From the NCBI GenBank assembly GCA_013815465.1, contig JACDGE010000013.1, forward strand, positions 1 to 42,093: DNA of 42,093 nucleotides, read 5' to 3'. The notes beneath the pieces were generated by a model, which worked only from the letters and a program-made list of their open reading frames with translations, was not told the DNA's origin and searched no databases. The DNA is from Alphaproteobacteria bacterium. Its GTDB lineage: Bacteria > Pseudomonadota > Alphaproteobacteria > UBA9655. This document shows positions 5,849 to 37,392 of this stretch, one piece after another (the first letter of the stretch is position 1; each line of letters begins with the position of its first letter). The translations under genes and the position numbers were made by a program.

Positions 5849-7537
5849 CTACGCCGTCTTTCTAACCAAAGGCTTATACCGTATGCGATGGGGTTGATCT
5901 GCATCCATCCCCAAACGGCGCTTATGATCAACTTCATAGGCTTGGTAATTCCCCTCAAACCATTCCACATGGCTATCCCCTTCAAAGGCCAGTATATGGG
6001 TTGCAATGCGGTCTAAAAACCACCGATCATGGCTAATGATAACGGCACAACCTGCGTATTCCAGAAGGGCTTCTTCCAGCGCACGAAGCGTATCAATATC
6101 AAGGTCGTTTGTCGGCTCATCCAGCAAAAGCACGTTAACACCTGATTTCAGCATTTTTGCCAAGTGGACCCGGTTTCTTTCACCGCCTGATAACTGACCT
6201 ACTTTTTTCTGCTGATCCGTGCCTTTAAAGTTAAAGCTGGCGCAATAGGCCCGGCTTTGCATTTTCCGCTTTCCGATGTCAATTTCATCATTTCCTTGGG
6301 AGATTTCTTCCCATACAGTTTTGGCAGAATCTAGACTATCCCGTGATTGATCCACATATCCTAACACAACCGAATCTCCCACACGAATGACCCCGTCATC
6401 CGGCACTTCTTGGCCTGTAATGAGTTTGAATAGGGTCGATTTTCCTGCACCGTTGGGGCCAATAATGCCCACGATCCCCCCTGGAGGTAACTTGAAGTTT
6501 AACTCGTCAATCAATAAACGATCCCCAAATCCTTTCGAAAGATTTTGGGTTTCAATCACAACCGACCCTAAGCGAGGTCCCGCAGGAATAATAATCTGGG
6601 CTGTGTCTTGAGATTTGCGCCCGTCCTGCGCCAAGAGCTCTTCATAGGATTGAATACGGGCCTTACTCTTTGTTTGGCGTGCTTTTGGAGACTGACGAAT
6701 CCATTCCAATTCCCGCTCCAGGGTTTTCTGACGAGATGATTCTTGCTTACCTTCTAAGATAAGGCGCTTTTGCTTTTGTTCGAGCCAAGCAGAGTAATTC
6801 CCTTCGAAAGGAATGCCTTGCCCCCTATCCAATTCTAAGATCCAACTGACGACGGTGTCGAGGAAATACCGATCGTGGGTGACCAGAATAACAGTTCCCT
6901 TATATTCCTCAAGATAGCGTTCAAGCCATGCAACTGATTCCGCATCTAGGTGGTTTGTGGGCTCGTCCAGCAGCAAAATATCTGGATGTTGAAGGAGAAG
7001 ACGGCAAAGAGCTACACGACGTTTTTCACCACCTGAGAGGGTTTTTACATCCGTATCCCCAGGAGGGCAGCGCAACGCATCCATAGCTATCTCGACTTGT
7101 CGGTTAAGATCCCAAGCTCCCACAGCCTCTATTTTATCCTGCAATTCGGCTTGTTCTGCCAAAAGAGCATCCATTTCATCGTCCGTCATAGGCTCGGCAA
7201 AACGCGCACTGACGGCTTCAAAGCGGTCCAATAATCCCTTTGTTTCTGAAAGAGCTTCAAAAATATTTTCTTCAACGGTCAAGTTTGGATTAAGTTCCGG
7301 TTCTTGGGATAAATACCCAACGGTTGTTCCTTGTGCGGCCCACGCTTCTCCGTTAAATTCCTTGTCCATTCCCGCCATGATTTTCATGAGTGTGGATTTT
7401 CCCGAGCCATTCACACCAATGATGCCAATCTTAGCCCCGGGGTAGAAGGACAGCCAAATGTCCTTAAAGACTTCTCGGCCTCCTGGGTAAGATTTGGTGA
7501 GACCTTTCATAACATAGATATATTGATTCGAGGCCAT
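5849..7537 (-). CDS. ettA: ABC-F translation factor EttA
   Basis: The 562-residue protein has two ABC ATPase domains and no membrane segments, which defines ABC-F. Walker A motifs are GVNGSGKST (41-49) and GPNGAGKST; signatures are LSGGEKRR and LSGGERNR; Walker B motifs are [12 protein letters not shown] and [12 protein letters not shown]. The start [20 protein letters not shown] is the typical EttA N-terminus. EttA binds the ribosomal E site and gates entry into elongation according to ADP/ATP levels. The ATG at 7537 has AGGAG 6 bases upstream. The open frame extends another 62 codons, but those run through the tRNA gene and must be rejected. It lies 20 bases downstream of tRNA-Ile2 and is probably cotranscribed with it. 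Confidence 0.96.
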
Positions 7538-7557
7538 GGTAACTCCTGGATAAATGG

Positions 7558-7633
7558 TGGTGGGCCCGGCAGGATTCGAACCTGCGACAACTCCGTTATG
7601 AGCGGAGGGTTCTGACCACTGAACTACAGGCCC
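7558..7633 (-). tRNA. tRNA-Ile2 (anticodon CAT, lysidine type)
   Basis: A full 76-base cloverleaf including an encoded CCA. The acceptor stem GGGCCTG pairs with CGGGCCC; the D stem is GTTC/GAAC; the anticodon stem CTCCG/CGGAG closes the loop CTCATAA; the T arm is GCAGG-TTCGAAT-CCTGC. The anticodon is CAT. It is not the initiator, since it has a G1-C72 pair and lacks the three G-C pairs of the initiator anticodon stem. C4-G69 and C5-G68 pairs, which TilS uses to recognise tRNA-Ile2, favour Ile2 (C34 modified to lysidine, reads AUA) over elongator Met. The Met versus Ile2 call is inference. Confidence 0.9.
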
Positions 7634-7646
7634 GAAGAATGTTCCT

Positions 7647-7674
7647 AAGATACCTGAAAATCGAGATGGGTCAA
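7647..7674 (-). promoter_or_regulatory. Likely sigma-70 promoter of the tRNA-Ile2/ettA unit
   Basis: On the minus strand TTGACC (7669-7674) and TATCTT (7647-7652) are separated by 16 bases and end 13 bases before the mature tRNA 5' end. It lies between the terminator of the upstream gene and the tRNA, the only place a promoter can be. Confidence 0.6.
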
Positions 7675-7706
7675 TGAAAAAATATTGACCAGATTCCTGC
7701 TGACCT

Positions 7707-7745
7707 AAAAAAAGACCCCTCACCCGCCCGCAGACCGGTGAGGGG
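7707..7745 (-). terminator. Rho-independent terminator of the ELM1-like gene
   Basis: On the minus strand CCCCTCACC (7745-7737) pairs perfectly with GGTGAGGGG (7724-7716), followed after TC by a run of seven T. It begins 4 bases after the stop codon at 7750. Confidence 0.9.
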
Positions 7746-35389: not shown

Positions 35390-36613
35390 TTGAAAGCGAC
35401 CGTTAAACTTGTACAGCCTCAAGAATCTGCCACCGCATCTGGCGTTGAAGGCTATCGGGTACTCGCACGTAAATATCGCCCCACAAAACTCAGCCAAGTC
35501 ATCGGTCAAGACTTTCTCGTCGAAACTTTGAAACGCGGTCTAGAAGGCGGGCGGTTGGGCCACGCCTTTATCCTCACCGGCATTCGCGGAACGGGGAAGA
35601 CCACGACCGCTCGCATCATTGCCCGCGCCCTTAATTGTCACGTTGGCCCTACCCCTGAACCTTGCGGCACTTGTCCATCCTGTACGGCGATCGCTCAAGA
35701 ACGATCCATGGATGTGATTGAAATCGACGCTGCAAGCCGCACAAGTGTGGATGATATGCGCGAGATCATTGAAGCGTCCCGTTACCGGGCTGTGTCTTCC
35801 GCCTATAAAATTTATATCATTGACGAAGTCCATATGCTCTCTAAAAGCGCATTTAATGCGCTTTTAAAGACCCTGGAAGAACCCCCTGCCCATGTGAAGT
35901 TTATCTTCGCCACTACAGAAATTCAAAAGGTCCCTGCGACGATTTTATCGCGGTGTGTGCGCTTTGACCTCAAACGCATTGAAAGCCCGACCTTGGCTGC
36001 CTATTTCAAGACCCTCTGCGCGCAAGAGGCTGTAGAATTTGACGAAGATGCCATCGCCCTCATTGCAAAAGCGGCAGAAGGCTCAGTGCGTGATGGACTG
36101 TCCCTTTTGGATCAAGCCATGACCTATGGCACCTCTGCTGAGGGCATTCCCCATGTCTCTGCTTTGAATGTGCGAAAAATGCTGGGTCTCTCCGAACAAG
36201 GAGCAGTGCTAGAATTGTTCCAAACCCTGATGGGGGGAGACATCGTCTCTGCTCTTGAAAAACTGCGCTATTTTTATCAAGAAGGATCCGATCCCGCACG
36301 GATTATCGAGGACCTATTGGATCTGAACCACTGGCTTCAGTGCTTAAAGATTAATCCGGACCTGGCACAAGATATCACTTTAAGCCCTGAAAAGCGGGAA
36401 AAAGGGTTGGAATTGGCCAAAAACTTAACGCTCCCCACCCTTACACGTGTTTGGCAAATGTTGTTGAAGGGGTTGGATGAGGTCAGGCGTGCCCCCTCCC
36501 CTCAGAAAGCCCTTGAGGTGCTTGTGATCCGCCTCACCCACATGACCCCTCTGCCCTCTCTCCAAGAACTTTTAGAGGGCCTGGGTGAAGGGTCAGAAAA
36601 AAAAAAGCCCTGA
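35390..36613 (+). CDS. dnaX: DNA polymerase III subunit gamma/tau, zero-frame (gamma-like) product
   Basis: The clamp-loader ATPase. Walker A GIRGTGKT is at 64-71, the zinc knuckle C83, C92, C95, C98 is complete, Walker B IIDEVH is at 143-148 and the SRC motif at 187-189. After domain III the zero frame reads GSEKKKP and stops at TGA 36611-36613, giving 407 residues, a gamma-like protein without the tau C-terminus. That C-terminus is encoded immediately downstream in the -1 frame (36607-37050), so tau of about 553 residues needs slippage on the A10 run at 36597-36606. The start is TTG 35390 with GAGGA 4 bases upstream; no closer ATG or GTG fits. A sequencing indel in the A run is the alternative explanation. 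Confidence 0.94.
   Translation: MKATVKLVQPQESATASGVEGYRVLARKYRPTKLSQVIGQDFLVETLKRGLEGGRLGHAFILTGIRGTGKTTTARIIARALNCHVGPTPEPCGTCPSCTAIAQERSMDVIEIDAASRTSVDDMREIIEASRYRAVSSAYKIYIIDEVHMLSKSAFNALLKTLEEPPAHVKFIFATTEIQKVPATILSRCVRFDLKRIESPTLAAYFKTLCAQEAVEFDEDAIALIAKAAEGSVRDGLSLLDQAMTYGTSAEGIPHVSALNVRKMLGLSEQGAVLELFQTLMGGDIVSALEKLRYFYQEGSDPARIIEDLLDLNHWLQCLKINPDLAQDITLSPEKREKGLELAKNLTLPTLTRVWQMLLKGLDEVRRAPSPQKALEVLVIRLTHMTPLPSLQELLEGLGEGSEKKKP
36587..36613 (+). promoter_or_regulatory. dnaX slippage site (A10 run with Shine-Dalgarno-like element)
   Basis: Ten A (36597-36606) followed by G contain the heptamer A-AAA-AAG in the zero frame, the same slippery sequence as E. coli dnaX. GAAGGG (36587-36592) lies 8 bases before the heptamer and could act as a stimulatory internal Shine-Dalgarno. 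The zero-frame stop TGA is only two codons past the run. A -1 ribosomal shift or insertion of one A by RNA polymerase joins the two dnaX parts. Confidence 0.75.
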
Positions 36614-37050
36614 GTGAACCAGAGCCTGCTACTTCTCAACCACCGCCCCCCCCTTTCGTAGAGGCTAGCTTGGAAGCCTCCTCAAATGAAAGTTACCACG
36701 AAACCTTCCTCTCTTTTGAAGACCTTGTCGACTGGGTAAGCCATGAACGGGAAGGAATTCTCCATGGTCATCTGGTTTTTGATACCCATCTTGTCTGCTT
36801 TGAACCTCCTCAGCTCACCCTGCGCCTCGCGAATAAAGCCCCTAAAGACCTTCCTCAGAAATTAGAGCTGCTTTTAAAAAAGAAAAAGAATCAGGACTGG
36901 ACGATTGCAATTTCCGATGAAATCGGTCAACCTACCCTTAATGAAAAAGAGAAAAAAATCCAGAGGGACCGCCAAAATGCCATTTTGCAAGAACCCCTTG
37001 TGAAAATGGTGATTGAGGCCTTCCCTGGAACAACCCTAATTGAAAATTAA
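36607..37050 (+). CDS. dnaX: DnaX tau C-terminal part in the -1 frame
   Basis: From the slippage site this frame is open for 147 residues: a Pro-rich linker (SEPEPATSQPPPPPF) and then a domain like the alphaproteobacterial tau C-terminus, with ILHGHLVFDTHLVCFEP, LANKAPKDLPQKLELLL, QPTLNEKEKKIQRDRQ and VIEAFPGTTLIE. Tau uses this region to bind the replicative polymerase. No independent ribosome site or ATG precedes it; the first in-frame TTG (36670) has none, so it is part of dnaX rather than a separate gene. It ends 15 bases before ybaB. Confidence 0.85.
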   Translation, partial: ALSEPEPATSQPPPPPFVEASLEASSNESYHETFLSFEDLVDWVSHEREGILHGHLVFDTHLVCFEPPQLTLRLANKAPKDLPQKLELLLKKKKNQDWTIAISDEIGQPTLNEKEKKIQRDRQNAILQEPLVKMVIEAFPGTTLIEN

Positions 37051-37065: not shown

Positions 37066-37392
37066 ATGTTCGGTAATATGGGCCAAATGATGAAACAGGC
37101 CAAAGAAATGCAAACGAAGATGGCAGAAACAGAAGCAAGACTGGAGACCCTTGAAGTTGATGGGGGGTCTGGTAATGGGTTGATCGCGATTACGGCAAGT
37201 GGCAAAGGAACCATAAAAACCCTTAAAATTGACCCAGCCCTCCTTGATCCACAAGAAGGCGAAGTTTTGGAAGATTTGATCGTAGCCGCTCTTCATGATG
37301 TCCAATCAAAGGTAGATGACTTAACGGCTGAAGAGATGGGAAAAGTTACGGGCGGCTTGAAACTGCCAAAAGGGATGAAGCTTCCTTTTTAA
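37066..37392 (+). CDS. ybaB: YbaB/EbfC family nucleoid-associated protein
   Basis: The 108-residue DNA-binding protein has the typical layout: a helical, Met- and Lys-rich start (MFGNMGQMMKQAKEMQTKM), a central beta region ending in GNGLIAITASGKGTIK, and the terminal helix with VTGGLKLPKGMKLPF. AAGGAG lies about 10 bases before the ATG. Its place between dnaX and recR is one of the most conserved gene orders in bacteria. Homologues bind DNA as dimers. Confidence 0.96.
   Translation: MFGNMGQMMKQAKEMQTKMAETEARLETLEVDGGSGNGLIAITASGKGTIKTLKIDPALLDPQEGEVLEDLIVAALHDVQSKVDDLTAEEMGKVTGGLKLPKGMKLPF

What the first reader, a model, noticed from the sequence alone, without database searches (positions are those of the whole stretch)
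35390..37050. dnaX with reversed gamma/tau logic: tau requires slippage on an A10 run
The zero frame ends as a 407-residue gamma-like protein two codons after ten consecutive A. The tau C-terminal domain is intact but in the -1 frame, with no start of its own. In E. coli the zero frame gives tau and the -1 shift makes gamma; here the shift would be needed to make tau. An A-AAA-AAG heptamer and a GAAGGG element upstream fit programmed slippage. The trade-off would be that tau, which holds the replisome together, is made only by recoding. A single-base sequencing or assembly error in the homopolymer is the main alternative.
Basis: partly seen in the sequence, partly recalled or inferred. Interest (0 to 1): 0.8.

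Follow-up and report, generated by a model that had tools for sequence, protein, structure and literature searches.

The report
Clamp-loader gene with inverted frameshift logic
In this bacterium and in all 14 relatives of its order where the gene could be read, the DNA-replication gene dnaX makes its long, replisome-organising product (tau) only if the cell "slips" on a run of 9 or 10 A's; this unusual layout was first reported in 2013 in other bacteria, and here it is fixed across a whole order.

Summary
The dnaX zero frame (35390-36613) ends as a 407-aa gamma two codons after A10 (36597-36606). The tau C-terminal domain (Pfam PF12362, E=1e-28) lies intact in the -1 frame, to 37050. All 15 genomes of the order with a readable dnaX share the layout: xxA AAA AAA AAG, a zero-frame stop 1-3 codons later, and tau in the -1 frame. 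The three run codons are invariant, whereas the eight other invariant Lys columns all mix AAA and AAG. The -1 frame is under purifying selection (dN/dS 0.15-0.29).
RNA-polymerase slippage on the A run is the likelier mechanism, as in Thermus: at least 9 A's are kept, more than the ribosomal heptamer needs; no downstream hairpin or Shine-Dalgarno element is conserved; and the order has both tRNA-Lys (UUU and CUU). Neither mechanism was measured.
The reversed arrangement is not new: Antonov et al. 2013 described 17 such genes, nine with A10. New here are its fixation across an alphaproteobacterial order, further reversed cases in the class on ribosomal-type heptamers, and mirror-image relatives with the A9 site but tau in frame.

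The parts
35390..36613 (+). dnaX zero frame = gamma (407 aa; AAA+ ATPase, lid, domain III)
   Evidence: Pfam PF13177, PF22608, PF12169; TIGR02397 420 bits
36597..36606 (+). A10 slippage run
   Evidence: A9 or A10 at the same place in 15/15 genomes of the order
36601..36607 (+). in-frame heptamer A_AAA_AAG at the 3' end of the run (possible ribosomal slip site)
   Evidence: sequence and phase
36587..36592 (+). GAAGGG, Shine-Dalgarno-like; not conserved in relatives, probably incidental
36611..36613 (+). zero-frame stop (TGA) ending gamma
   Evidence: zero-frame stop after 1-3 further codons past AAG in 15/15
36615..36617 (+). +1-frame stop; a message with one A lost would also end in a gamma-sized product
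   Evidence: sequence
36607..37050 (+). tau-specific coding in the -1 frame (gamma + this = about 553 aa), PF12362 domain at about 36712-37041
   Evidence: PF12362 E=1.3e-28; purifying selection
37066..37392 (+). ybaB/ebfC (usual dnaX neighbour)
   Evidence: PF02575
37402..37998 (+). recR (usual dnaX-ybaB-recR cluster)
   Evidence: RecR domains

Best explanation
This is a working dnaX of the 'reversed' type: the template frame encodes gamma, and tau is made only by recoding. Most likely mechanism: RNA polymerase slips on the A9-A10 run and makes messages of mixed run length. For the window's A10, messages with one A added (or two lost) put the tau domain in frame and give tau (about 553 aa). 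Unslipped messages give gamma. Messages with one A lost end three codons later in the third frame and also give a gamma-sized protein. Shown: layout, order-wide conservation, selection on the run and on the tau frame, absence of conserved ribosomal stimulators, and two tRNA-Lys species. Inferred: that slippage happens in transcription, its efficiency, and that both proteins are made.
For: 15/15 genomes of the order with a readable dnaX have xxA AAA AAA AAG plus a nearby zero-frame stop, with tau in -1. Run codons AAA, AAA, AAG are invariant, while 8/8 other invariant-Lys columns mix AAA and AAG and 4-fold sites differ by 0.64 at the median. The preceding codon always ends in A (Glu, Leu, Val or Ser codons; about 4e-6 by codon usage, one draw per close clade), so at least 9 A's are kept where a ribosomal heptamer needs 6 A's and a G. 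Tau dN/dS is 0.15-0.29; codon-position differences 0.35/0.23/0.55. No conserved downstream hairpin: z-scores run from -5.0 to +2.2, and only 2 of 15 are at -2 or below. tRNA-Lys UUU and CUU are both present; the Atkins review (PMC5009743) suggests this as a reason why Thermus uses polymerase rather than ribosome slippage. The +1 frame stops quickly in 14/15. A7/A9/A11 runs gave 10/40/63% shifting in E. coli reporters of another gene (PMC3711429).
Against: The run always ends in AAG in phase, so A_AAA_AAG is always present and the ribosome could contribute; that G is also fixed by the Val/Ala codon of tau, so it does not discriminate. Direction is uniformly -1, which the rule of Antonov et al. 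would read as ribosomal, although one ancestral event explains it too. No RNA or protein data. The codon probabilities ignore shared ancestry within the order beyond collapsing close clades. In G008 the tau domain has a large internal deletion, so tau may be dispensable in one lineage.
Confidence: 0.7

Rival explanations
1. Programmed -1 ribosomal frameshifting on A_AAA_AAG, as in E. coli but with the products swapped.
For: The heptamer is in phase in 15/15; direction is always -1; other reversed dnaX genes of the class use bare heptamers: G365 A_AAA_AAG, G073 and G288 C_CCA_AAG, G397 C_CCA_AAA, G121 A_AAG_GGG with a strong hairpin.
Against: At least 9 A's are conserved though 6 suffice; no conserved Shine-Dalgarno element or hairpin; a tRNA-Lys(CUU) is present, expected to hold AAG firmly. 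The heptamer-type relatives showed only tRNA-Lys(UUU) in the searches made.
Confidence: 0.22
2. Sequencing or assembly error in the homopolymer; the true gene is one fused frame.
For: Homopolymers are error-prone; draft genome of 151 contigs.
Against: The same phase recurs in 15 independent genomes of three genera; many other A9 runs in this genome lie inside uninterrupted frames; zero-frame stop and -1 frame are co-conserved.
Confidence: 0.01
3. The tau domain is translated separately by reinitiation after the gamma stop.
For: The -1 frame has occasional TTG/GTG/ATG codons.
Against: First start codons are not conserved and often lie inside the domain, and the open -1 frame reaches back across the run in every genome.
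Confidence: 0.04
4. Gamma alone is used and the tau frame is decaying.
For: G008 has lost about half of the tau domain.
Against: Purifying selection on the -1 frame, and the tau domain intact in 14 of 15.
Confidence: 0.03

Closest known systems
Reversed two-ORF dnaX (GeneTack cluster; Antonov et al. 2013, PMC3711429)
   Same: Gamma ends in the zero frame at a poly-A run, tau follows in -1; nine of those 17 genes have A10; transcriptional slippage proposed there too.
   Different: Species named in the text are Chlorobi; the other genera are in a supplement I could not open. Fixation in an alphaproteobacterial order, selection tests and tRNA comparison are added here.
Thermus thermophilus dnaX (A9, transcriptional slippage; described in PMC1088944, PMC5009743)
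   Same: A9-type run at the gamma/tau junction, stops in the non-tau frames, two tRNA-Lys.
   Different: In Thermus the template frame encodes tau and slippage makes gamma.
E. coli dnaX (-1 ribosomal frameshift on A_AAA_AAG)
   Same: Same heptamer, same -1 direction, same two products.
   Different: Products swapped; E. coli has a Shine-Dalgarno element, a hairpin and a sole tRNA-Lys; here the first two are not conserved and there are two tRNA-Lys.
Blochmannia dnaX (PMC3017870)
   Same: Tau requires slippage at a homopolymer.
   Different: There the frameshift lies inside the tau-only region, downstream of the gamma site, in reduced endosymbiont genomes.

Membership tests
Reversed (two-ORF) dnaX | Zero-frame ORF ends as gamma at a slip site | tested here: met
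Reversed (two-ORF) dnaX | Tau C-terminal domain intact in the -1 frame | tested here: met
   PF12362, E=1.3e-28
Reversed (two-ORF) dnaX | Conserved across species | tested here: met
   15/15 genomes of the order with a readable dnaX
Programmed transcriptional slippage (Thermus type) | Conserved homopolymer of 9 or more | tested here: met
Programmed transcriptional slippage (Thermus type) | mRNA population of mixed run length | not testable with these tools
   no RNA data
E. coli-type -1 ribosomal frameshifting | X_XXY_YYZ heptamer in phase | tested here: met
   A_AAA_AAG in 15/15
E. coli-type -1 ribosomal frameshifting | Conserved downstream stem-loop | tested here: not met
   single sequences such as G014 fold strongly
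E. coli-type -1 ribosomal frameshifting | Upstream Shine-Dalgarno stimulator | tested here: not met
   a GAAGGG close to the run in the window, but the aligned upstream codons diverge among relatives
E. coli-type -1 ribosomal frameshifting | Sole tRNA-Lys (UUU), a feature of E. coli that makes AAG slippery | tested here: not met
   UUU and CUU both present

The most novel reading that the evidence does not exclude
In Alphaproteobacteria the gamma/tau junction of dnaX is repeatedly a slip site whose logic flips between lineages by single indels: reversed on A9-A10 (this order), reversed on heptamers (a second order and G121), and mirror-image fused genes with A9 and an immediate -1 stop, or with A_AAA_AAG and E. 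coli logic (G194). Because slippage is near 50%, the DNA frame is close to neutral, and whether ribosome or polymerase slips follows the tRNA-Lys set: UUU alone with heptamers, UUU plus CUU with A runs.
Probability: 0.35. Interest if true: 0.6.

Novelty: new member of a known kind. Interest (0 to 1): 0.42.

Why it matters
Tau holds the replisome together, so an essential product would depend on recoding throughout an order. Annotation pipelines would call the gene truncated or a pseudogene. The comparison with mirror-image relatives offers a natural test of why some bacteria slip at transcription and others at translation, through the tRNA-Lys set.

Tried and rejected
Assembly error: rejected by 15 conserved genomes. 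Separate start for tau: rejected, no conserved start. Conserved hairpin or Shine-Dalgarno element: looked for, not found. Shared descent with the fused-A9 clade: the gamma tree does not join them (single gene, many forks weak). The supplement of Antonov et al. was not available, so it is unknown whether a member of this order is among the 17. L125 (UBA3439), with tau apparently in another frame, was a lone case and was not pursued.

Full report
Observation. The zero frame of dnaX runs from TTG 35390 to TGA 36613 (407 aa) and carries the ATPase, lid and domain III of the clamp loader. It meets A10 at 36597-36606 in the phase GAA AAA AAA AAG CCC TGA. The -1 frame, open from 36589 to 37050, encodes PF12362, the gamma/tau C-terminal domain (E=1.3e-28). 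Downstream are ybaB and recR, the usual neighbours.

Not an error. A search of the whole order (17 genomes) found dnaX in 15, all with open frames of 398-429 aa, whereas most other genomes of the class have 520-740 aa in one frame. All 15 have xxA AAA AAA AAG, then 1-3 codons, then a stop, with tau in -1. A or T runs of 9 or more are rare in the genome (80), and many lie in uninterrupted frames.

Selection. In the codon alignment the three run codons are AAA, AAA, AAG in 15/15. The eight other columns that are Lys in all 15 are all mixed (2-9 AAG of 15), and four-fold sites are nearly saturated (median difference 0.64). The codon before the run ends in A in all 15 whatever its amino acid (about 4e-6 by codon usage with close clades collapsed; independence only approximate). 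The tau frame shows third-position excess and dN/dS of 0.15-0.29, against 0.04-0.10 for gamma. One genome, G008, has lost part of the tau domain.

Mechanism. Conservation of at least 9 A's goes beyond the A_AAA_AAG heptamer. Downstream folding is not conserved (z from -5.0 to +2.2), and the Shine-Dalgarno-like element is not kept in relatives. The order has tRNA-Lys UUU and CUU. The Atkins review says the tight pairing of a dedicated tRNA with AAG may explain Thermus's use of polymerase slippage. I therefore favour transcriptional slippage (0.7), with ribosomal slippage the main rival (0.22). They are not exclusive, and nothing here measures either.

Relatives. Four genomes of one other order (G073, G288, G397, G365) and G121 are also reversed but use heptamers C_CCA_AAG, C_CCA_AAA, A_AAA_AAG and A_AAG_GGG. 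Their sister G194 is fused, with A_AAA_AAG and a -1 stop two codons on, i.e. E. coli logic. Seven fused relatives carry A9 with a -1 stop 3 nt after the run, the mirror image: L085 reads GTA AAA AAA AAG TCT AGT where the window's order typically reads AAA AAA AAG TCT TAA. On a gamma tree the window's order is one clade (97) and reversed versus fused needs four changes (quick tree, many open forks). Only tRNA-Lys UUU was found in G365, G397, G288, G073 and G121. This absence is weak evidence: some genomes are 85-91% complete, and the searches missed tRNA-Lys altogether in G194.

Known or new. Antonov et al. 2013 (PMC3711429) announced this organisation of dnaX, 17 genes in 12 genera, nine with A10, and suggested transcriptional slippage. 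[quoted passage not shown] The window's gene is therefore a new member of a known kind. Further literature searches found no description in Alphaproteobacteria (open-access library only).

Noticed in passing
L234 (G000 contig C16, about 932-941): Another A10 run with a -1 frame transition, joining a short N-terminal frame with a signal-like start to a trypsin-like protease domain (PF00089, E=6e-9); slippage-expressed, phase-variable or broken.
   Followed up: partly
L235 (G000 contig C18, about 403-411): A9 run with a +1 frame transition between two frames of 132 and at least 233 codons; no Pfam match for the second.
   Followed up: partly
G000 contigs C26, C35, C37, C91, C119: Repeated 3' portions (46-50 nt, 96-100% identical) of tRNA-Lys, like attachment-site remnants of integrated elements; similar pieces in relatives.
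   Followed up: no
L137 and L138 (G000 contigs C111 and C33): tRNA-Lys(UUU) and tRNA-Lys(CUU) with near-identical flanking sequence, suggesting that one arose from the other by duplication or that both sit at integration sites.
   Followed up: no
L015 (G008): dnaX with the reversed site kept but about half of the tau domain deleted.
   Followed up: partly
L125 (Alphaproteobacteria UBA3439): 598-codon dnaX frame with the tau domain matched in a different frame; possible further case or draft error.
   Followed up: no
window 7558-7633 (-): tRNA-Met lies inside the called ORF 5849-7723, so that ORF's listed start is probably too far upstream.
   Followed up: no
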